From: Actinomycetota bacterium
GTDB lineage: Bacteria; Actinomycetota; Actinomycetes; Streptosporangiales; Streptosporangiaceae
NCBI GenBank assembly: GCA_021324595.1
Contig: JAJPIV010000024.1
Coordinates: forward strand, 1-64,000
Direction of reading: 5' to 3'
DNA length: 64,000 nucleotides
The notes under the pieces were generated by a model. The model was not told the DNA's origin, did no database searches, and saw only the letters and a program-made list of their open reading frames with translations. Below are positions 6,034 through 37,373 of the stretch, piece after piece (within the stretch, counting starts at the first letter, position 1; each line of letters opens with the position of its first letter). Made by a program: the position numbers and the translations under genes.

Positions 6034-8100
6034 GTGGCGACCCTGGCATCGGCTCCCGGCCGGAAGCCGCACGGCAGGTTCCGGCTCGCCGTCGACATCG
6101 GCGGCACCTTCACCGACCTGGTGGCGGTCGACACGGCCAGCGGCGCGGTGGTGCGGGCCAAGGCGGACACCACGCCCGGCCAGCTCGACGCAGGGGTGCT
6201 CAAGGCGCTCGCCCAGTCCGGCGTGCCCGGCGAGGCGATCGAGGCGTTCATCCACGGCACCACGGTGGTGATCAATGCGATCACCGAACGGCGCGGCGCG
6301 GTGACCGCCCTGGTCACCACCAGGGGCTTCCGCGACGTGCTGGAGATCGGCCGCGCCAACCGGCCGGACCTGTACAACCTCGCGTACGCCAAGCCGGCGC
6401 CGTTCGTGCCCAGGCACCTGCGGTTCGAAGTCACCGAGCGGATGACCTGGCAGGGCACAGCCGCCCGGCCGCTGGACGAGGACGAGGCCGCCGCGGTCGC
6501 CGGCTCGATCGCCGCCGCCGGGGTCACCGCGGTGGCGGTCTGCCTGCTGCACGCCTGGGCGAACCCCGGGCATGAGCGGCTGCTCGCCGCGATCCTGCGC
6601 GCCCGCCTCCCGGGCATCGCGGTCGTGGCCTCCCATGAGGTCAGCGGCCAGTGGCGGGAGTACGAGCGGTCGAGCACGGTGGCCCTGTCCGCCTACGTCC
6701 AGCCGGTCGTCGCGGGCTACCTCGGCTCGCTGGCGGCCTCCCTGCGGGGCCAGGGCGTCATCGGCCCGCTCTATGCGATGCGGTCGAACGGCGGCGTCGG
6801 CTCGTTCGAGCGCGCGGCGCGGGCACCGGTCTCGCTGCTGGAGTCCGGCCCGGTCGCCGGGGTGATCGCCGCCGCCGAGCTCGGGCGCCGTCTGGGCAAC
6901 CGGAACGTCCTCACGCTGGACATCGGCGGGACCACCGCCAAGACCTCCGCGATCCGCGACGGCGAGGTGCGGATCGACACGCTGCACCACATCGGCAGGA
7001 CGCCGTCGTTCCCCGGGTACCCGGTCCAGGTCCCGACCGTGGAGATCATCGAGATCGGCGCCGGCGGCGGATCGGTGATCTGGCTGGACGGCGCGGACGG
7101 CCTGCACGTCGGGCCGCGCAGCGCCGGAGCCGATCCCGGCCCGGCCTGCTACGGCCGCGGCGGCGCCAGGCCGACCCTCACCGACGCGAACCTGCTGGCC
7201 GGCCGGCTCGATCCCGGCTACTTCCTCGGCGGGGCGATGCCGCTCGACCCCGCTGCCGCCGAGCGGTCGCTCGCCCGGCTCGGCGCGCAGGTCGGGGCGG
7301 ACGCCCGGGCGGTGGCCCGCGGGGCGCTGCGGTACGCGACCGCGCAGATGAGCCACGCGCTGCGGCTGGTGACCGTGCGCCGGGGCTACGACCCGCGGGA
7401 CTTCGCCTTCGTCGCCTACGGCGGCGCCGGCCCCCTCCACGCGACGCTGCTCGCCCGCGAGCTCGGCATCACCAGGACCGTGATCCCGCCCGGCCCGGGC
7501 CACTTCTCCGCGTTCGGCATGCTCGCCAGCCCGATGCGCGGGGAGGCCGTGCGGACCGTGCTCGGCCGCCTCGGACGGCTCGACCTCGCCGCCGCGTTCG
7601 CCGGCGTGGAGCGGGCGGCGGCCGCCGAGCTCGGCCAGGGGACGCAGGGCGCCGGGGATGTCCAGGTCGCCCGGTACGCCGAGCTCAGGTACGCCGGCCA
7701 GGAGCACACCCTGGAGGTCCCGGTTCCCGACCCGCGGGATCCCGCCGCGATCGCCGCCGCGTTCGAGCGCCGCTGCCTGGAGGCGTACTCGTTCCGGCTC
7801 GACGCCCCGGTCGAGGTGGTCGCGCTGCGGGTCAGCGCGACGGCGCCGGCGGCCGGGCTGAGCTGGGCCGACCAGGCGCCTCCCGGGGCGGTGCCGCCCT
7901 CCGCCAGCCGGGTGGTGGACCTTGACCCCTACGGGGAGCCGCGCCGGGTGCCGGTGCTGCTGCGCGCCGAGCTCGCGGACGGGCGCCAGGTCCGCGGGCC
8001 GTGCGTGATCGAGGAGCCGGCCGCCACCACGCTGGTGCTGCCCGGGCAGGCGGCCGGCCAGGACCGCGCGGGCAACCTCGTGGTCGAGGAACTGCCATGA
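6034..8100 (+). CDS. hyuA: Hydantoinase/oxoprolinase alpha subunit (HyuA-like)
   Basis: This is the ATP-binding subunit of a hydantoinase/5-oxoprolinase-type enzyme that opens a cyclic amide with ATP hydrolysis. The N-terminal domain begins with RLAVDIGGTFTDLV (phosphate-1 loop of the ASKHA fold). The middle has SNGGVGSFE, LDIGGTTAKTS and IGAGGGSV, then a C-terminal Hydant_A_C-like region. From the GTG at 6034 the product is 688 residues; a GTG at 5992 would add 14 residues but sits against the operator. It is the first gene of a nine-gene operon; its stop overlaps the next start as ATGA, implying one-to-one translation with HyuB. Substrate class (hydantoin, oxoproline or acetone/acetophenone carboxylase-like) is not decidable by eye; the local context favours a hydantoin-like ring. 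Confidence 0.85.
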   Translation: MATLASAPGRKPHGRFRLAVDIGGTFTDLVAVDTASGAVVRAKADTTPGQLDAGVLKALAQSGVPGEAIEAFIHGTTVVINAITERRGAVTALVTTRGFRDVLEIGRANRPDLYNLAYAKPAPFVPRHLRFEVTERMTWQGTAARPLDEDEAAAVAGSIAAAGVTAVAVCLLHAWANPGHERLLAAILRARLPGIAVVASHEVSGQWREYERSSTVALSAYVQPVVAGYLGSLAASLRGQGVIGPLYAMRSNGGVGSFERAARAPVSLLESGPVAGVIAAAELGRRLGNRNVLTLDIGGTTAKTSAIRDGEVRIDTLHHIGRTPSFPGYPVQVPTVEIIEIGAGGGSVIWLDGADGLHVGPRSAGADPGPACYGRGGARPTLTDANLLAGRLDPGYFLGGAMPLDPAAAERSLARLGAQVGADARAVARGALRYATAQMSHALRLVTVRRGYDPRDFAFVAYGGAGPLHATLLARELGITRTVIPPGPGHFSAFGMLASPMRGEAVRTVLGRLGRLDLAAAFAGVERAAAAELGQGTQGAGDVQVARYAELRYAGQEHTLEVPVPDPRDPAAIAAAFERRCLEAYSFRLDAPVEVVALRVSATAPAAGLSWADQAPPGAVPPSASRVVDLDPYGEPRRVPVLLRAELADGRQVRGPCVIEEPAATTLVLPGQAAGQDRAGNLVVEELP

Positions 8101-18719: not shown

Positions 18720-21182
18720 ATGGACCCGGAACGCGCCGCGGCGAGCGTCGAGGATCTCATCCTCGATCGCCTGGCCGGCTCGGGCCTGTCCGAGCAGGCC
18801 GGCGACCTGATCATGGCGGCCCTGCTCGGTGACGACGAGCTGGCCGCGGCGGTCCGCGCGGACGGCGAGCGCGGCTCGCGGCCAGAGCGGGCCGAGCCGG
18901 CGCCGGCCGCCCGGCCCGTCCCGGTCTACCTGCGCTCGGTCATCGTGGAGGGGTTCCGGGGGATCGGGCCGCAGGCCGCGCTGCGCCTTCAGCCCGGGCC
19001 GGGGCTGACCGTGGTCACCGGGCGGAACGGCTCCGGCAAGTCGAGCCTCGCCGAGGCGGCCGAGCTCGCGCTCACCGGTGACAACAAGCGATGGTCGGAC
19101 CGGCCCGCGACCTGGCGGAGCGGGTGGCGCAACCTGCACGCGGCCGGGCCGACCAGGATCTGCCTCGAGCTGGCCCTGGACGGCCAGCCGGGCGTCACGA
19201 AGGTGATCCGCGAGTGGCCCGCCGGGGACGGGCTTGAGGCGGGCACGGCCTTCGCCCAGCGGCCCGGCGGCCCGCGCCTGCCCCTGGGCGAGCTGGGCTG
19301 GCGGGAGCCGCTGGAGCTGTTCCGGCCCTTCTTGTCCTACTCCGAGCTCGGCGCGCTGGTCAGCGGGAAGCCGAGCGAGATGCACGACTCCCTCCAGGCG
19401 ATCCTCGGCCTCGACGCACTGATCGGCGCGGAGCGGCGGCTCAGCGCCGCCCGCCGGGAGGCCGAGGCGGCGAGCAAGCGGTCGGGCGCGGAGCTCCCCG
19501 CCCTCCTGGGACTGCTGGCCGGCCTCGCCGACGAGCGGGCGAGGCGCGCCGAGGCCGCCCTCACGGGCAGGCCGCCGGACCTGGCCGTCATCGACGCGCT
19601 CGCCAGCGGCGGCGGGACGGCCCCCGACGAGGCCGCCGCCTGGCTGAATCAGGCCGCGGCGATCGCGCTTCCCGGGCGCGAGGCCGCCCGGGAGGCGATC
19701 GCGCGCCTGGCCGGCGCCCAGGAGCGGGTCGCGGCGCTGGCCGGGACGGCCGCCGGGGACTCCCGGCGCCTGGCGCGGCTGCTCGGCGAGGCGCTGGAGC
19801 ACCACGCGGCGCACCCCGGCGAGCCATGCCCGGTGTGCGGCGGCCTGGTGCTCGACGAGGCATGGGCGGGCCGTGCCCGCGCGGAGATCAGCCGGCTCAC
19901 CGCAGCCGCCGCCGCCGCCGACCAGGCCCACGCGGACCTGGCCGCCGCCACGCGGGCGGTGCGGGCCCTGGCCGGCCCCGCACCGCCCGTTCTGGCTGAA
20001 GGGGCCGGCCCCGGCGGGCTCATCGATGCCGCGCCGGCGCGCGAGGCCTGGCGGGCGTGGCAGGAGCTCGCCGCCACCGGCACCGTCGCGGACCTGATCC
20101 GCGAGGCGGAGGACCGGTTCGGCGCGCTGGCCGGTGCCGTGGCGCAGCTGCGGGAGCGGGCAGCAGTCGCGCTGCGCCAGCGGAGCGCGGACTGGCGGCC
20201 GGCGGCCGAGGCCCTGGCCGCATGGGCGGCGAGCGAGCGTTCCGCGCGGCGCGCCGCCGTGATCCTCACCGAGCTGCGCGCGGCGATCGGCTGGCTGCGG
20301 CGCGCCGGCGGCGAGATCCGCAACGCGCGCCTGGCGCCGTTCGCGGACAGATCGGCCCGGGTGTGGCAGATGCTGCGGCAGGAGAGCAACGTCGAGCTGG
20401 GCCCGGTCCGGCTGGAGGGAGCGGCCACCACGCGCCGCGTGGCGCTGGACGTCACCATCGACGGCACCCCCGGGGCCGCGCTTGCCGTGATGAGCCAGGG
20501 GGAGCTGCACGCGCTCGGGCTGGCCCTGTTCCTGCCGAGGGCCACGGCGCCGGACAGCCCGTTCCGGTTCGTCGTGATCGACGACCCGGTGCAGTCCATG
20601 GATCCCGCCAAGGTGGACGGCCTGGCCCAGCTCCTGGCATGGGCCGCGCGGGGCCGGCAGGTGGTCGTGTTCACCCACGACGACCGGCTGCCCGAGGCGC
20701 TGCGCCGACTCCAGCTTCCCGCCACCATCTGGGAGGTGGCGCGGCGCGAGCGTTCCGTGGTCGAGCTGCGGAAGAGCGAGGACCCGGTCAGCCTCTACCT
20801 GGACGACGCGCGGGCGCTGGCCCGCACCGGCGAGCTGCCGGAGGAGGCCCGCGCGGTCGTCACCGCCGGGTTCTGCCGGAGCGCCATCGAGGCGGCGTGC
20901 CACGAGGCGGTGCGGGCCCGCCGGATCGGCGCGGGCGCCCGCCACGCCGACGTGGAGCGAGCGCTGGCGGAGGCGCGGACCGTGCACCAGGTCGTGGCGC
21001 TCGCGCTCTTCGACGACGCGCGGCGCGGCGACCACGTGGCCGCCCGGCTGCGCGAGCTCGCCGGGCAGCCGGGCGTCACTGCCTTCCAGGCGGCCAAGTC
21101 CGGCACCCACGACGCCTACCGGGGCGACCTGGCGCGCCTGGTCGAGGACACCGCCCGGCTCGCCGGGGTGCTGCGGCGGTGA
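18720..21182 (+). CDS. SMC/Rad50-like ABC-ATPase with zinc hook (RloC-like)
   Basis: An 820-residue ATPase of the SMC/RecF/Rad50 superfamily. An N-terminal helical segment (1-65) precedes the ATPase: strand VIVEGFRGIG, Walker A TGRNGSGKSS (about 100-108), and the SYSEL Q-loop. A long helical arm is interrupted by a zinc-hook CPVC (C370, C373). The returning arm leads to the signature-like MSQGELHAL, Walker B FRFVVIDDPVQSMD (about 612-625) and FTHDD. A helical domain of about 160 residues (660-820) follows. This order resembles RloC, an anticodon-nuclease ATPase, but no nuclease motif is obvious in the chain. The next gene is coupled to it by GTGA. Probable role: DNA-end or stress-sensing ATPase in phage defence (inference). 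Confidence 0.75.
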   Translation: MDPERAAASVEDLILDRLAGSGLSEQAGDLIMAALLGDDELAAAVRADGERGSRPERAEPAPAARPVPVYLRSVIVEGFRGIGPQAALRLQPGPGLTVVTGRNGSGKSSLAEAAELALTGDNKRWSDRPATWRSGWRNLHAAGPTRICLELALDGQPGVTKVIREWPAGDGLEAGTAFAQRPGGPRLPLGELGWREPLELFRPFLSYSELGALVSGKPSEMHDSLQAILGLDALIGAERRLSAARREAEAASKRSGAELPALLGLLAGLADERARRAEAALTGRPPDLAVIDALASGGGTAPDEAAAWLNQAAAIALPGREAAREAIARLAGAQERVAALAGTAAGDSRRLARLLGEALEHHAAHPGEPCPVCGGLVLDEAWAGRARAEISRLTAAAAAADQAHADLAAATRAVRALAGPAPPVLAEGAGPGGLIDAAPAREAWRAWQELAATGTVADLIREAEDRFGALAGAVAQLRERAAVALRQRSADWRPAAEALAAWAASERSARRAAVILTELRAAIGWLRRAGGEIRNARLAPFADRSARVWQMLRQESNVELGPVRLEGAATTRRVALDVTIDGTPGAALAVMSQGELHALGLALFLPRATAPDSPFRFVVIDDPVQSMDPAKVDGLAQLLAWAARGRQVVVFTHDDRLPEALRRLQLPATIWEVARRERSVVELRKSEDPVSLYLDDARALARTGELPEEARAVVTAGFCRSAIEAACHEAVRARRIGAGARHADVERALAEARTVHQVVALALFDDARRGDHVAARLRELAGQPGVTAFQAAKSGTHDAYRGDLARLVEDTARLAGVLRR

Positions 21183-26575: not shown

Positions 26576-26762
26576 GGGTGGCGTGGTCAAGCGGGCCGGC
26601 ACGCTCGCCCGCCCCGGTTAGCAGCTGCCCGCCGAGGCGCGGCGGCTCCGCGCCGCGGGCCGGGCGGCGGCCGCGTTCCGCTCCCGCCGGGGCGCGGGCT
26701 GACGTACTTTCGTGGTCGTGCGTTCCATCCCGCCGTGGCCGAATCCGCAGGGGTGACCGGCG

Positions 26763-27706: not shown

Positions 27707-29521
27707 ATGAGAACTGGCAGCTACGGGCATGCGCGGGCATTCAGGCCTGCCCTTGGCGCCCTGGCCGCGCTCGCCATCGCGGCCGGCGTCCAGTCGGCCG
27801 CCGGCCTGGCGCCGGCCGCCGCCGCCCCCGCTCCCGCCGGCGGAGCGCCCGCGTGGATGCACGTGATCAGCCTGCGCTCCGGGTACGAGCGCGCCCTTCG
27901 CCACGTCGGGCTCGGCCGGATCGCGGGCATCACCTACCGCCTGGGCTACCATCCGAAGGCGACCGCATCGGCGGCGGGCGCCGGCTGCGCGGAGCCCGAC
28001 TGCCCGCTCGCCTACCACGGCGGCCAGGTCGAGCACGCGGTGCGCATCTACCTGCTGCTGTGGGGGCCAACCTGGGCGACCAGCCCGGGGGAGAAGGCCA
28101 GCGCCGCCTACCTGAAGGGCTTCTACCAGGCCCTCGGCGTCCGGCCCAAGGACGACTGGTCGACGATCACCTCCCAGTACGCCGACCCGGCCGGCTTCCC
28201 GGTCTTCAACGGCTCGCAGTTCGCCGGAGTCTTCACCGACACGTCCACGCCGCCCCCAGGGACCACGCAGGCGCAGTTCACGGCGGAGGCGAACGCGTTC
28301 GCCGCCAGCCAGAACCTCACCGTGAACCCGCAGGACGACCAGGTCGTGATCGCCACCCAGTCCGGCACCTGCCCCGCCGGCTTCTACGCGCCGGGATGCT
28401 CCGGCGGGTCCGGCTACTACTGCGCGTACCACTCCGATGACCCCACCAGCGGGGTCACGTTCACCAACCTGCCGTACCTGCTGGACGCCGGCGGCGGGTG
28501 CGGGGAGGACATCATCCCCAACGGGAGCGACTCCGCCTACGACGGTTTCTCGATCGTCGGCGGCCACGAGTACGCCGAGTCGATCACCGACCCCTACCCG
28601 GACACCGGCTGGATCGACTCGAGCGACTCGGTCTCCGGCGGGGAGATCGGCGACAAGTGCGCCTGGACGTACCCGGGCACCGCGAAGCTGGACATCGGCC
28701 TGGTGACGCTCTCCGACGGCACCTACGCGATGCAGCCGCTGTTCAGCAACGCCAACCTGGCGGCGGGCCGTCAGAGCTGCCCGCTCGCGGCGAGCCCGGA
28801 CAGGCTCACCATCACCAGCCCCGGCAGCCAGACGACGGTCCACGGCACGCCGGTCAGCCTGGCGGTCCGCGCCACCTCCCCGGCAGGCGGGCGGCTGGCC
28901 TTCAGCGCCACGGGGCTTCCGGCCGGCCTTTCGATCAGCCCGGCCACCGGGCGCATCACCGGGACGCCGACCACGATCGGATCGAGCGCCGTCACGGTCC
29001 GGGCCTTCGACACGACCGGGGCGTCCGCGTCCGCGTCGTTCACCTGGACGGTGACCGCCTGCCCGCCGGCCCAGCTGCTGAAGAACCGCGGGTTCGAGAC
29101 CGGGAAGCTGGCGCCGTGGACGGGCACCCGGGGCGTGGTGACCAGGTCCTCCCGCACCTACCCCGCGCGCTCGGGGAAGTGGCTGGCCCTGCTCCGCCGC
29201 GGCGACACCATCTCCCAGGAGGTGACGATCCCGGGCGACTGCGCGAGCGCGGAGCTCTCGTTCTGGGTGAAGATCATCAGTGACGCGCCGGCCCGCCGGG
29301 TCTACAGCACGCTCAAGGCCGAGATCGCCGGCCCGGGTGGCACCGTGCTCGCCACCCTGCGCACGTTCAACAACCGCGGCCGGGGGCGCTACCGGCTGTT
29401 CACCTTCGGCCTCGCCCGCTACCTGGGCCGGACGATCGTCGTGACCTTCCTGGCGCACCAGGTCCGCCCGGGCTACACGACCAGCTTCCTGATCGACCAG
29501 ACCGCCCTGAGGGTTTCCTGA
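27707..29521 (+). CDS. Secreted exordium/metalloprotease-like protein with Ig-like and C-terminal beta domains
   Basis: A 604-residue secreted protein with a signal peptide (about 1-40, ending in APAAAAPA). The first domain (about 50-360) resembles the phosphate-induced/EXORDIUM-like family: YHGGQVEHAVRIYLLLWGPTW near its start and GGHEYAESITDPYPDTGW (around residues 285-302) with an HExxE-type motif that could bind metal. EIGDKCAW and several paired cysteines follow. Next is a putative Ig (He_PIG) domain with GLPAGLSISPATGRITGTP, then a C-terminal jelly-roll-like domain (about 455-604) beginning LLKNRGFETGKLAPWTG. Likely role: extracellular, perhaps a protease or carbohydrate-associated protein. 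The enzymatic assignment is tentative. Confidence 0.65.
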   Translation: MRTGSYGHARAFRPALGALAALAIAAGVQSAAGLAPAAAAPAPAGGAPAWMHVISLRSGYERALRHVGLGRIAGITYRLGYHPKATASAAGAGCAEPDCPLAYHGGQVEHAVRIYLLLWGPTWATSPGEKASAAYLKGFYQALGVRPKDDWSTITSQYADPAGFPVFNGSQFAGVFTDTSTPPPGTTQAQFTAEANAFAASQNLTVNPQDDQVVIATQSGTCPAGFYAPGCSGGSGYYCAYHSDDPTSGVTFTNLPYLLDAGGGCGEDIIPNGSDSAYDGFSIVGGHEYAESITDPYPDTGWIDSSDSVSGGEIGDKCAWTYPGTAKLDIGLVTLSDGTYAMQPLFSNANLAAGRQSCPLAASPDRLTITSPGSQTTVHGTPVSLAVRATSPAGGRLAFSATGLPAGLSISPATGRITGTPTTIGSSAVTVRAFDTTGASASASFTWTVTACPPAQLLKNRGFETGKLAPWTGTRGVVTRSSRTYPARSGKWLALLRRGDTISQEVTIPGDCASAELSFWVKIISDAPARRVYSTLKAEIAGPGGTVLATLRTFNNRGRGRYRLFTFGLARYLGRTIVVTFLAHQVRPGYTTSFLIDQTALRVS

Positions 29522-32977: not shown

Positions 32978-33153
32978 GCGGGCGGCGGCCGTCACGCCGC
33001 CGATCCCCCGTCGCCTACCATGCCGCCCTTGCCCCGGTCATTCTCACGCGCGGCCGCTGCAGGCTGCCGTAGGTTCCTGGTATCACCGGATCGCGCGGCC
33101 GCGCCACCAGCCGCGTGATCCCCGTCGCCCCATCGCGCGCCAAGGAGACTGCC

Positions 33154-34053
33154 GTGGATTCCCCCCTGACTTCCGACGTCGGCCCGGTCGGCGCGCCCGC
33201 CGGTCCGGGCGCCCCGCCAGCCGGGCCCGGTCACCCGGCCCCCGGAGGCGAAGGGCCGGGCGATGCGCCCGGCGGCGCGGCGGGGCTCGAATCCGCACTG
33301 GCCGCCGTCCAAGGGGCCGCCGAGTCAGCCCTGCGGGCGGCGGCGGGCGTCGCCGGGCAGCTGCGCAAGGTCCGGAGCGCGGCGGTGAACGGGCAGGTCC
33401 GGGAACTGCGCCGGTCGCTGGAGGCCGCGGCGGCGCAGGCGGCGAGCCTCGCGGCCGCCGCGGCCGACCTGCGGTCGCGGTACGAGTTCGACGAGGCCGC
33501 CCACCTCGCGTCCGGCGGGTACGCGAAGGAACTGCTCGCGGTCGCGGCCGAGCGAGGGGTCGCCATGTTCGAGGAGGACGAGCGGCTGCTGTGCTATCCC
33601 TCGATCGTGCGGCTGATCCCCGGCGACGCCGCGGTCGAGGTCGACCGGCGCCGCGAGCGGCGGCTGCGGCCCTCGGTGCTGGTCGGGCTGCTGGCGGCGC
33701 GGCAGGCCAGGCCGCCGGCGTTCAGGCCGGAGCCGTTCCTGGAGAGCCTGGCCGAGGGGTACGACCTCGTCGTCGCCCGGTCGGGCAAGAAGGCCGGCGC
33801 GGTGGCGCGGCTGACCGACATCTGGTCCGTGCTCACGCTGCTGCCCGGGCAGGGCAGGGAGTACACCAAGCCGGAGTTCGCCCGGGACCTGTACCTGCTG
33901 GACCAGAAGCACGCGCGGCGCACCAAGGACGGCCGGGAGCTGCGCTGGCACGCCAGCAGCGGAGTCCGCGGGGCCGGCGTGCTCACCACGGTCGCGCGCA
34001 CCGGGCAGCAGCAGGTGTACTGGGGCGTCTCGTTCACCCGCGAGGAGCCGTGA
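33154..34053 (+). CDS. Coiled-coil protein, first gene of a BrxD-like cassette
   Basis: A 299-residue protein I cannot assign to a named family. Residues 1-50 are Pro/Gly-rich. About 50-115 is Ala/Arg/Leu-rich and predicted coiled coil (ALRAAAGVAGQLRKVR, VRELRRSLEAAAAQAA). The C-terminal ~180 residues form a globular domain (CYPSIVRLIPGDAAVEVDRR ... PEFARDLYLLDQ ... GAGVLTTV). The GTG at 33154 has AAGGAG seven bases upstream. Its stop shares a base with the next start (TGATG). Strict coupling with the two ATPase-like genes suggests a structural or recognition subunit. Confidence 0.6.
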   Translation: MDSPLTSDVGPVGAPAGPGAPPAGPGHPAPGGEGPGDAPGGAAGLESALAAVQGAAESALRAAAGVAGQLRKVRSAAVNGQVRELRRSLEAAAAQAASLAAAAADLRSRYEFDEAAHLASGGYAKELLAVAAERGVAMFEEDERLLCYPSIVRLIPGDAAVEVDRRRERRLRPSVLVGLLAARQARPPAFRPEPFLESLAEGYDLVVARSGKKAGAVARLTDIWSVLTLLPGQGREYTKPEFARDLYLLDQKHARRTKDGRELRWHASSGVRGAGVLTTVARTGQQQVYWGVSFTREEP

Positions 34054-35063
34054 TGCGCGGCGACGACGCCCCGCCCACCGGGGTCCTCGGCGGGGGCGTG
34101 CTGAAGGTCGACGACTACGCGGCGTTCCTGGGCCGGGAGTACCTGTCCGGTTACCTGCCCGCAGGCGGCGCGACGGTTAAGGTCGCGGTGGTCGGCGACG
34201 CCAGCGCCGGCGACCGGCTGGAGTCCGCGCTGGCGGCCACGACCGCCGCCCACGGCGGCCTGTTCGTCAGCGTGCCCGCCGACCTCGTGCGGGTTCACAT
34301 GGTCGACCAGATCTTCTTCGCGGTTTCCCGCGCGATCGACTGGGACAGCCTGGCGGCCGAGTGCGTCCGGGCGGCCTACCAGCGGGCCTCGTTTCCGGCC
34401 CCGGCCGACGGCGACCTGGCCGTGGCGGCGGCCGCCCGTCACCATGACGTCGACGCGCCTGAGCTCTACCGGAGCGTCCGGCGCCTGCTCGAGCGGGACC
34501 TGCTCGGCACCCATGAGATCGCGACCGAGATGGGCCGGGCCATGCTCCGCCTGGCCCAGGCGCACCTCGGCGCCGGGGACACCGATGACGCCGAGCGCGC
34601 CGCCGTCCTGGCCTGGCTGCGCGGCGAGGCGCGCGCGATCACCGCGCTGCGCCCCGCCCTCATCTACTCGCGGATCGGACGGCACAACGCGCGGTCGATG
34701 CTGAGGTCGGCCGCCGCGCTGCTCGCGGCCCGGCGGCGGGTCCTGGTCATCCACCTGGACCTGGCCAGGCTGGCCGAGGCCCGCCGGCCGCCCGCTCCGG
34801 CCAGGACCGGCTTCTACTACTCCAAGGCGGCCGTCCTCGACGCCTACGAGGTGCTGCGGCAGTTCATCGACACCACCGACGAGCTGCGCGGCGTGCTGCT
34901 GCTCGCGGTGGTTCCCCCGGAGCTGATGACCGACCAGTCGCGCGGGCTGCCGGCCTACTCGGCCCTGCGCCTGCGGGTGGCCGACGAGGTGCGGGACCGC
35001 AGGAGGGCGAACCCATTCGCCGCGCTCGTGCGGCTGGAGACCCGGCTGGAGGCGGTGGCATGA
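34053..35063 (+). CDS. DUF2791/BrxD-related protein with degenerate P-loop
   Basis: A 336-residue protein. Its C-terminal third (LLLAVVPPELMTDQSRGLPAY ... ADEVRDRRRANPFAALVRLE, about 280-330) resembles the same region of DUF2791/BrxD ATPases. The start (LKVDDYAAFLGREYLSGYL) and middle (ADLVRVHMVDQIFFAVSRAIDWD) also fit that superfamily. Where Walker A should be it has GDASAGDR (residues 48-55), without the Lys-Ser/Thr, so it probably does not hydrolyse ATP and may be a regulatory or structural paralogue of the next gene. It overlaps both neighbours (TGATG before, ATGA after). The assignment is moderate. Confidence 0.55.
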   Translation: MRGDDAPPTGVLGGGVLKVDDYAAFLGREYLSGYLPAGGATVKVAVVGDASAGDRLESALAATTAAHGGLFVSVPADLVRVHMVDQIFFAVSRAIDWDSLAAECVRAAYQRASFPAPADGDLAVAAAARHHDVDAPELYRSVRRLLERDLLGTHEIATEMGRAMLRLAQAHLGAGDTDDAERAAVLAWLRGEARAITALRPALIYSRIGRHNARSMLRSAAALLAARRRVLVIHLDLARLAEARRPPAPARTGFYYSKAAVLDAYEVLRQFIDTTDELRGVLLLAVVPPELMTDQSRGLPAYSALRLRVADEVRDRRRANPFAALVRLETRLEAVA

Positions 35064-36484
35064 GCGCGGCGGCCGACAGCACGGGCCGGCCCGGGGACCC
35101 GCTGGCGCGGCGGCGGGCGATCGAGGCCCTGCGGTCAGGGGTGCAGAGCTGGGACGCGGTCGCCATCCTGGGGTCAGGGCAAGCGGAGGCGGAGGACAGG
35201 TTCAGCGCGCTGCTCGACCGGTTCGCCAGATCCGAGCGCCTCACCGGGACGCCGGACCGGGCGGGAGCGCCGGCCGGGCTGCTGATCGGCGGCGGGTTCG
35301 GCTCCGGGAAGAGCCACCTGCTCACTCACCTGGCCTCGCTGGCGATGTCGTCGGGCTTCGTCGCCTCCACGGTCGTGATCAGCAAGGAGACGCCGCTGTA
35401 TGACCCGGCCAAGACGTACCGGGCCGCGATCGAGTCGGCCCTGGGCCCGGGCCGGGAGCATGGCGTGCTCGCCGATGCCGCGGCGGAGCTTGACCCCGAT
35501 ACCCCGCGCTACGCGGAGTTCTCCCGGTGGGTGAACTCGCAGGCGGCGGAGATGGACGAGCGGTTCGCGGCGAGCCTGCTCTGCCACGAGCGGTTGCGCG
35601 CCGGGAACGTGGCCGGGGCCGACGAGACGGTCGACGGGCTGGTGCGGTTCTGGGCGGGCGAGCCGCTCCGGCTCGGCGACCTGCGCCGCGCGCTGAAGTC
35701 GGTCGGGGCGGCCGGCCTGTACGAGTTCCGGCCGGTGCCGGCGGCGGAGCTGGCCAGGCAGCGCTTCCGGTTCGCCGCGCGCATGATGCGCGCCGCCGGC
35801 CGGGCGGGCTGGGTGATCCTCTTCGACGAGGTCGAGCTCATCGGCCGGTACTCGCTGCTGCAGCGCGGCCGTTCCTACGCCGAGGTGGCCAGGTGGCTGG
35901 ACGGCAGCGGCGCCCCCGCGGACGGGGCGCTGCCGCTGATCCCGGTCCTGGCGATGACCGACGACTTCGAGGAGGCGGTGCTCGTCGGCAAGGGCGACCG
36001 GCAGGGCCTCCCGGCGAGGCTGCGCTCGAAGGGGACTCCCGCCTGGGACGAGTCCGCCGCCCTCGCCGAGGCCGGCATGCGCCACATCGAGCAGGACATG
36101 GTGCAGCTCGCCCAGCCCGACGACGCCGAGCTCGACCGCGCCTACGCCATCCTCAAGCGGCTGCACGGCGAGGCGTTCGGCTGGTCGCCTCCGGACGTGC
36201 CCGGACTGGAGCGGCTCGGCGCGACTCGGATGCGGCAGTACGTGCGCGCGTGGATCAACGAGTGGGATCTCGTGCGCCTGGATCCGCTGTTCCGGCCGCA
36301 GACCGAGGTGGTCCAGCTCGCCGCTGACTACACCGAGGACGCCGCGCTGGAGGACAGCGCCCAGGAGGATGCCGGCCCGGGCTGGGCGGCGCCGGACGGG
36401 GCGCCACAGGACAGTGCCAGCGGCGGGGCGGATCCAGGCGGCGGCGCAGCCCTGCGGGAGCCCGGCGCCTGGCGGACGGGCTAG
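35060..36484 (+). CDS. BREX system BrxD-like P-loop ATPase (DUF2791)
   Basis: A 474-residue ATP-binding protein of the BrxD (DUF2791) group. It has the N-terminal RRAIEALRSGV, Walker A GGGFGSGKSH (77-86), VVISKETPLYDPAKTYRAAI (cut as the conserved motif after the first strand), Walker B VILFDEVELIGRYSL (D256, E257), and a sensor region PVLAMTDDFEE. The last ~60 residues are acidic and low-complexity. BrxD occurs in type 2 BREX (Pgl) phage-defence loci, but no PglX, PglZ, PglW or helicase gene is near here. The gene overlaps the preceding one by ATGA and is convergent with the methyltransferase 31 bases downstream. Confidence 0.78.
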   Translation: MSAAADSTGRPGDPLARRRAIEALRSGVQSWDAVAILGSGQAEAEDRFSALLDRFARSERLTGTPDRAGAPAGLLIGGGFGSGKSHLLTHLASLAMSSGFVASTVVISKETPLYDPAKTYRAAIESALGPGREHGVLADAAAELDPDTPRYAEFSRWVNSQAAEMDERFAASLLCHERLRAGNVAGADETVDGLVRFWAGEPLRLGDLRRALKSVGAAGLYEFRPVPAAELARQRFRFAARMMRAAGRAGWVILFDEVELIGRYSLLQRGRSYAEVARWLDGSGAPADGALPLIPVLAMTDDFEEAVLVGKGDRQGLPARLRSKGTPAWDESAALAEAGMRHIEQDMVQLAQPDDAELDRAYAILKRLHGEAFGWSPPDVPGLERLGATRMRQYVRAWINEWDLVRLDPLFRPQTEVVQLAADYTEDAALEDSAQEDAGPGWAAPDGAPQDSASGGADPGGGAALREPGAWRTG

Positions 36485-37336: not shown

Positions 37337-37373
37337 CCAACGCTGGCCCGCGCCCGGCGCGGGCCAGCGTTGG
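37337..37373 (-). terminator. Hairpin terminator after the DUF2892 gene
   Basis: A perfect 18-bp inverted repeat, CCAACGCTGGCCCGCGCC (37337-37354) with its complement (37356-37373), is separated by a single base, leaving a minimal loop. It starts ten bases beyond the stop of the DUF2892 gene on the minus strand. No T-run. The upstream side of the methyltransferase gene follows after 33 bases. Confidence 0.65.

What the first reader, a model, noticed from the sequence alone, without database searches (positions are those of the whole stretch)
33154..36484. Three-gene coupled cassette built around a BrxD-like ATPase, without the rest of BREX
A coiled-coil protein, a DUF2791-like protein with a ruined P-loop (GDASAGDR at residues 48-55) and an intact BrxD-like ATPase (GGGFGSGKSH) overlap by one or four bases, so they form one functional unit. 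BrxD is known from type 2 BREX/Pgl phage defence, and DUF2791 ATPases also occur with TerB-like proteins and helicases in other defence loci. Here no methyltransferase, PglZ phosphatase, kinase or helicase adjoins it. The pairing of an active ATPase with an inactive paralogue plus a coiled-coil subunit suggests a stand-alone sensing or defence complex. The defence role is inference.
Basis: partly seen in the sequence, partly recalled or inferred. Interest (0 to 1): 0.82.

Follow-up and report, generated by a model that had tools for sequence, protein, structure and literature searches.

The report
ORC-like ATPase trio, probable phage-defence module
Three tightly overlapping genes make an active and an inactive copy of an origin-recognition-type ATPase plus a coiled-coil partner; the same trio recurs in about forty sparsely scattered bacteria, often beside a DNA helicase or known antiviral genes, so it is probably the core of an unnamed phage-defence machine, although in this window it stands alone.

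Summary
Three co-directional genes overlap by 1 and 4 bases: a coiled-coil protein (g1), a PF10923 protein whose P-loop is gone (g2), and an intact BrxD-like AAA+ ATPase (g3). All three are under purifying selection. g1 also carries a C-terminal domain with weak likeness to the ORC1 winged helix. The g2 model is an ORC/Cdc6 fold, and the P-loop is missing in all 38 g2 relatives compared. A genome-collection scan gave 42 loci; 38 of them, and one more from a whole genome, hold all three genes in order. The trio is rare (about 1% of the sampled class). Its flanks vary and no locus carries BREX genes. In 23 of 43 loci a helicase lies within three genes, against none among 183 more distant genes. 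Partners are SNF2 or SNF2-Mrr helicase-nucleases, an XPB/PbeA-like helicase, or complete Shango; one divergent trio sits in a DISARM island. A tree places the helicase-linked forms deepest; the window trio is a derived solo form. The trio is neither BREX nor Shango by the tests made here. Best reading: the ORC-like ATPase core of an unnamed helicase-based defence family. Defence and mechanism are inferred; how the solo form works is unresolved.

The parts
33154..34053 (+). g1: 299-aa coiled-coil plus C-terminal alpha/beta (winged-helix-like) protein, no family
   Evidence: no Pfam/PADLOC family for the window protein; AF2 model pLDDT 88.8
33142..33147 (+). AAGGAG ribosome-binding-like site for g1, 6 bases before GTG 33154
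   Evidence: read directly
33286..33480 (+). g1 antiparallel helical hairpin (residues 45-109)
   Evidence: AF2 helices 45-79 and 82-109; only generic coiled-coil matches
33721..34047 (+). g1 C-terminal domain (residues 190-298), weakly ORC1 winged-helix-like
   Evidence: VIA Z 6.2 to 8s0e_A, 5.6 to 8s0c_A and to condensin 7q2y_C; conserved block RDLYLLDQ
34053..35063 (+). g2: 336-aa inactive ORC/Cdc6-type AAA+ paralogue
   Evidence: PF10923 1.1e-11; AF2 model, archaeal ORC2 Z 10.7
34194..34217 (+). g2 degenerate P-loop GDASAGDR (residues 48-55)
   Evidence: no GxxxxGK[ST] in 38 of 38 relatives
34758..34760 (+). g2 Walker-B aspartate D236, kept without the following glutamate
   Evidence: D in 38 of 38; next residue mostly L or I, never E; aligns with Walker B of g3
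35060..36484 (+). g3: 474-aa BrxD-like AAA+ ATPase with intact motifs
   Evidence: PF10923 1.1e-13, NCBIfam BREX_BrxD 44 bits against a cut-off of 350
35288..35314 (+). g3 Walker A GGGFGSGKS (residues 77-85)
   Evidence: present in 36 of 36 relatives
35813..35830 (+). g3 Walker B VILFDE (residues 252-257)
   Evidence: D256 and E257 in 36 of 36 relatives

Best explanation
The three genes encode the ATPase core of an unnamed, helicase-linked defence family related to, but distinct from, BrxD of type 2 BREX and SngB of Shango. [quoted passage not shown] g2 is a sister subunit that keeps the fold but cannot bind ATP in the usual way, comparable to the inactive subunits of eukaryotic ORC. g1 supplies a coiled coil and probably a winged-helix DNA-binding domain, which BrxD itself lacks. 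Together they probably form a mixed ring or clamp on DNA that recognises foreign or abnormal DNA and uses ATP to load or license a helicase or helicase-nuclease, which blocks the invader. In the window no such helicase adjoins, so the solo trio either works with a helicase encoded elsewhere, or acts alone by binding and blocking DNA. Shown: gene unit, motifs, selection, sparse recurrence, helicase and defence linkage in relatives. Inferred: complex formation, DNA loading, antiviral function.
For: Conserved order and translational overlaps of the trio in 39 of 43 loci. ATPase motifs in 36/36 g3, P-loop in none of 38 g2. g2 model best matches archaeal ORC2 (Z 10.7), Drosophila ORC chain C (9.9) and BrxC (8.8); 27 of 38 g2 proteins match BrxD and 31 SngB in PADLOC; g2 and g3 profiles align, E 5e-5. 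A helicase lies within three genes of the trio in 23 of 43 loci and in 0 of 183 more distant genes: XPB/PbeA-like helicases directly downstream, SNF2 or SNF2-Mrr nuclease, complete Shango divergently adjacent (SngA 1e-54, SngB 1e-171, SngC 3e-263). A divergent trio lies in a DISARM island (DrmA 9e-242, DrmB 7e-24) beside a PbeA-like helicase and near a NERD-helicase gene. Sparse occurrence: absent from 4 same-genus genomes, present in few of the sampled genera, about 1% of the class. BrxD-BrxHI helicase dyad and proposed helicase loading: PMC12839542; Shango is antiviral: PMC10250203.
Against: The window locus has no helicase, nuclease or other defence gene next to it, and its genome lacks the cognate XPB-type helicase (best generic hit 42 bits). 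Several close relatives are also solo among ordinary genes. No copy was found in viral contigs, phages or plasmids. Helicase-linked loci are related to one another, so the 23 are perhaps four or five independent linkages. The g1 winged-helix match is weak and its Foldseek search found nothing significant. No complex was modelled and no experiment exists.
Confidence: 0.6

Rival explanations
1. A non-defence DNA-maintenance or stress module: an accessory ORC-like loader that helps replication restart or repair, with helicases as natural partners.
For: ORC-type fold; helicase partners; window and several relatives sit among ordinary genes; not on mobile elements; purifying selection.
Against: About 1% occurrence and absence from same-genus genomes; fusion of the partner helicase to an Mrr nuclease; neighbours Shango and DISARM.
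Confidence: 0.25
2. A remnant: in the window's lineage the helicase effector has been lost and the trio is a decaying or regulatory leftover of a defence system.
For: Helicase-linked forms are deepest in the tree apart from the outgroup and solo forms are derived; no cognate helicase in the genome; broken trios exist (L058, L059).
Against: dN/dS about 0.2 in all three genes, intact motifs and intact coupling in solo relatives too.
Confidence: 0.1
3. A stray fragment of type 2 BREX (the first thought on seeing a BrxD-like ATPase).
For: PF10923 and BrxD similarity.
Against: Far below the BrxD equivalog cut-off (44 of 350 bits); no PglZ above cut-off in the genome and no other credible PF10923 gene; no BREX gene family recurs beside the trio loci; a relative genome carries a separate BrxD-like locus as well.
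Confidence: 0.03

Closest known systems
BrxD with BrxHI of type 2 BREX (Pgl)
   Same: ORC/Cdc6 AAA+ ATPase of PF10923; partner helicase; helicase loading proposed for BrxD (PMC12839542)
   Different: Has an inactive sister ATPase and a coiled-coil/DNA-binding-like subunit; no PglX, PglZ, PglW or BrxC; g3 far below the BrxD cut-off; helicase of relatives is XPB- or SNF2-type, not the Ski2-like BrxHI
Shango (SngA TerB, SngB ATPase, SngC helicase)
   Same: PF10923 ATPase linked to a helicase; lies divergently next to the trio in one clade of relatives
   Different: No TerB subunit in the trio; g3 scores only 16 bits on SngB; the trio is an addition to Shango, not a version of it
PbeABCD / XPB-type SF2 helicases
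   Same: The downstream helicase of the Acidimicrobiia form is most like PbeA (8e-59)
   Different: PbeC is a coiled-coil ABC ATPase and PbeD a DndE relative (PMC10853773); no PbeB/C/D match for the trio and no phosphorothioation genes seen
Eukaryotic/archaeal ORC-Cdc6
   Same: g2 fold; mix of active and inactive AAA+ subunits; winged-helix-like g1 domain
   Different: Bacterial, accessory, putative winged helix on a separate chain, no replication role shown

Membership tests
Type 2 BREX (BrxD) | g3 passes the BrxD equivalog cut-off | tested here: not met
   44.3 bits against 350
Type 2 BREX (BrxD) | PglZ, PglX, PglW, BrxC, BrxHI in the locus or genome | tested here: not met
   No PglZ over cut-off in the genome; besides the trio only one short AAA match just over the PF10923 cut-off; none in the neighbourhood. 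PglX and PglW were not searched genome-wide
Shango | SngA TerB protein, SngB, SngC as an operon | tested here: not met
   No SngA/SngC match in the trio, SngB only 16 bits; no TerB or helicase neighbour in the window
PF10923 BrxC/BrxD ATPases | Match above the curated cut-off | tested here: met
   g2 44.8 and g3 51.3 bits against 22.2
ORC/Cdc6-clade AAA+ | AAA+ fold like ORC/Cdc6 | tested here: met
   g2 model Z 10.7 to archaeal ORC2 over 168 residues; g3 was not modelled and is assigned by family
ORC/Cdc6-clade AAA+ | Winged-helix DNA-binding domain in the complex | tested here: inconclusive
   g1 C-terminus Z 6.2 to ORC1 winged helix, within the noise range
ORC/Cdc6-clade AAA+ | Oligomeric ring on DNA | not testable with these tools
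   No complex prediction or biochemistry available
PbeABCD | PbeB/C/D homologues | tested here: not met
   No Pbe match for window g1-g3 or for any of 38 g2 proteins; only the neighbouring helicase of relatives is PbeA-like
Wadjet JetA (DUF3375) | g1 matches DUF3375 | tested here: inconclusive
   3 of 39 g1 proteins match weakly, best 7e-4, not the window's; may be coiled-coil bias
Anti-phage defence system | Protects against phage | not testable with these tools
   Needs plaque assays

The most novel reading that the evidence does not exclude
A bacterial counterpart of the origin recognition complex used for immunity: a hetero-oligomeric AAA+ clamp of one active and one inactive ORC-like subunit plus a separate winged-helix/coiled-coil subunit that recognises invading DNA and can be coupled to interchangeable helicases (SNF2-Mrr, XPB-type, Shango) or act alone.
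Probability: 0.3. Interest if true: 0.8.

Novelty: new variant of a known kind. Interest (0 to 1): 0.62.

Why it matters
BrxD and SngB are ATPases of unknown task in known defence systems. A conserved set that pairs such an ATPase with a dead sister and a putative DNA-binding subunit, and that changes helicases between lineages, would suggest what these ATPases do (load helicases on foreign DNA) and gives a small, testable system. Neither PADLOC (2023), Pfam nor NCBIfam (June 2026) has a system or equivalog model that it passes, and full-text searches found no description of it.

Tried and rejected
BREX remnant: rejected. Membership in Shango: rejected for the window, though true Shango adjoins some relatives. 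Trio as PbeBCD: rejected from PADLOC scans and the published identities of PbeB-D. Mobile element carriage: scans of viral contigs and protein searches of plasmids and phages found none. Clean empty site in same-genus genomes: not obtained; the copper genes and ABC genes lie elsewhere or in different order. Cognate helicase elsewhere in the window's genome: no XPB-type relative above generic level; SNF2 genes exist but SNF2 is near universal, so uninformative. Composition shift or promoter/terminator signals around the trio: composition flat at about 75% GC and no pattern hits. Foldseek of g1 against PDB: nothing significant; only coiled-coil and weak winged-helix matches on second look. PDB sequence searches: no informative relative. 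Literature: searches for DUF2791, the family names, BrxD-like and ORC/SNF2/Mrr combinations gave no description of the trio. My own gene caller missed genes in lower-GC loci; these were re-called separately.

Full report
OBSERVATION. The window lies in a 4.09 Mb high-GC genome assembly of 168 contigs, on a 99 kb contig; its relatives are actinobacteria. Three + strand genes at 33154-36484 overlap by one base (TGA/ATG at 34053) and four bases (ATGA at 35060). g1 begins at GTG 33154 behind AAGGAG. Pfam assigns PF10923 (BrxC_BrxD, the former DUF2791) to g2 and g3 above its cut-off and nothing to g1. NCBIfam BREX_BrxD gives g3 44 bits against a cut-off of 350, and PADLOC gives BrxD 4e-11 and SngB 9e-4. 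So g3 is a BrxD relative but not a BrxD. Between close relatives dN/dS is 0.16-0.25 for every gene.

RECURRENCE. Searching P0003 in 60 related genomes found close relatives in four genomes of other genera and none in four same-genus genomes. In 395 genomes drawn from the class only five, the window's included, have a full-length g3. In 251 genomes of another family, two had a full-length g2 match. A scan of 84,980 species genomes with the g1 alignment gave 42 loci (Actinomycetes, Acidimicrobiia, Gemmatimonadetes, Chloroflexi, Deltaproteobacteria, Syntrophobacterales). With the locus from G051 these make 43, of which 39 hold g1, g2 and g3 in this order, usually overlapping by four bases. Of the other four, three end at a contig or stretch end and one is broken beside a transposase gene. 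No copies appeared in plasmids, phages or viral contigs.

THE PROTEINS. All 36 g3 relatives keep Walker A and the Walker B Asp-Glu; none of 38 g2 relatives has a P-loop, while all keep one Walker B-like aspartate without the catalytic glutamate. The g2 and g3 profiles align with each other (E 5e-5, probability 68%), and 27 of 38 g2 proteins individually match BrxD and 31 match SngB. AlphaFold2 models are confident for g1 (pLDDT 88.8) and g2 (88.8). The g2 model matches archaeal ORC2 (Z 10.7), a chain of Drosophila ORC (Z 9.9) and BrxC (Z 8.8); Foldseek alone had no hit at E<0.001. g1 is a helical hairpin followed by an alpha/beta domain; residues 190-298 align with ORC1 winged helices at Z 5.4-6.2, which the tool warns can be a common arrangement. 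I treat the winged helix as a lead only. g1 matches DUF3375 in 3 of 39 members at best 7e-4, also only a lead.

NEIGHBOURHOODS. Clustering of neighbouring genes, with family scans, gives these forms. (a) Gemmatimonadetes, Chloroflexi, Delta and Syntrophobacterales: g1-g2-g3, a roughly 190-aa protein of no family, then an SNF2 helicase, which in L053 ends in an Mrr nuclease (Mrr_cat 1.2e-23) and in L041 looks the same by eye. (b) Acidimicrobiia and some Actinomycetes: a roughly 530-aa protein with weak sigma-70 region 4 likeness, g1-g2-g3, then an XPB/Rad25-type helicase closest to PbeA in PADLOC. (c) Catenulispora and Micromonospora: SNF2 helicase directly downstream; two related MAG loci (L019, L021) have a divergent SNF2 gene. 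(d) Actinoplanes, Phytohabitans and relatives: a complete Shango operon divergently adjacent, shown by PADLOC for L029 and by clustering for L027, L035 and L036; two contig-edge loci show only its SngA end. (e) Solo trio: the window and several others, with no shared flanks apart from two near-identical pairs and two single distant genes. Helicases occupy positions -3, -1, +1 or +2 in 23 of 43 loci and 0 of 183 more distant genes. The loci are related by descent, so this is perhaps four or five linkages rather than 23. A tree of the concatenated proteins rooted on the divergent G327 trio places SNF2-Mrr-type forms deepest, then the XPB clade, then the Actinomycetes clade that contains Shango-linked, SNF2-linked and solo forms (branch supports were not examined). 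The G327 trio itself sits in a complete chromosome between DrmA/DrmB of DISARM plus a 1567-aa protein with a TmtA-like start and a PbeA-like helicase end on one side, and a NERD-helicase gene on the other, with a C5 DNA methylase further out.

THE WINDOW LOCUS. It is solo. Upstream are csoR, copZ and copA; downstream a PF04672 methyltransferase, a YgaP-like protein and a DrrAB-type ABC transporter. The genome has no PglZ above cut-off and no cognate XPB-type helicase.

INTERPRETATION. I conclude that the trio is the ATPase core of an unnamed family of helicase-linked systems with likely defence function (0.6). The proposed working, inferred, is an ORC-like mixed ring on DNA that licenses a helicase; the published suggestion that BrxD loads BrxHI (PMC12839542) and the antiviral activity of Shango (PMC10250203) are the nearest precedents. 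Main rival: a DNA maintenance module (0.25). The solo form's action is the least certain step.

NOVELTY. I found no name or description for the trio in Pfam, NCBIfam, PADLOC 2023 or the searched papers. Subscription literature, supplements and preprints were not searched, so prior description cannot be excluded. I rate it a new variant of a known kind.

Noticed in passing
L117:97-10417 (G327:C1): A 1567-aa protein with a TmtA-like N-terminus and a PbeA-like helicase C-terminus lies between a GajB-like helicase/DISARM DrmA-DrmB cluster and a divergent copy of the trio.
   Followed up: partly
L043:8384-9985 and equivalents in L040, L042, L045, L047-L051, L054, L060: A fast-evolving roughly 530-aa protein with weak sigma-70 region 4 likeness directly precedes the trio in the XPB-linked form; no known family.
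   Followed up: partly
L041:12989-13579, L052:13627-14190, L053:4425-4991, L057:13003-13491: A conserved roughly 190-aa protein without Pfam match sits between g3 and the SNF2(-Mrr) helicase.
   Followed up: partly
L058:10461-12174 and L059:10390-13519: Broken trios: one with a transposase-like gene running into g1, one with a PIN-like gene between g1 and g2 and a shortened g3.
   Followed up: no
L016:1-8834 (G028:C46) and L123:2202-12950 (G496:C1): BREX-like loci with BrxD-like ATPase and helicase genes; G028 also carries the trio elsewhere, so the two coexist.
   Followed up: no
window 37337-37373: A perfect 18-bp inverted repeat with a 1-base loop at the start of the PF04672 methyltransferase gene.
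   Followed up: no
window 27707-29521 and L019:11163-12998: Both loci carry a related (61% identical) putative secreted Ig-domain protein within a few kb of the trio.
   Followed up: no
window 7556-7644, 19634-19720, 26652-26740: ARAGORN calls three tRNAs; the tRNA-Trp lies inside a coding gene on the other strand and two are tRNA-Gly(CCC) of unusual length, so some may be false calls.
   Followed up: no
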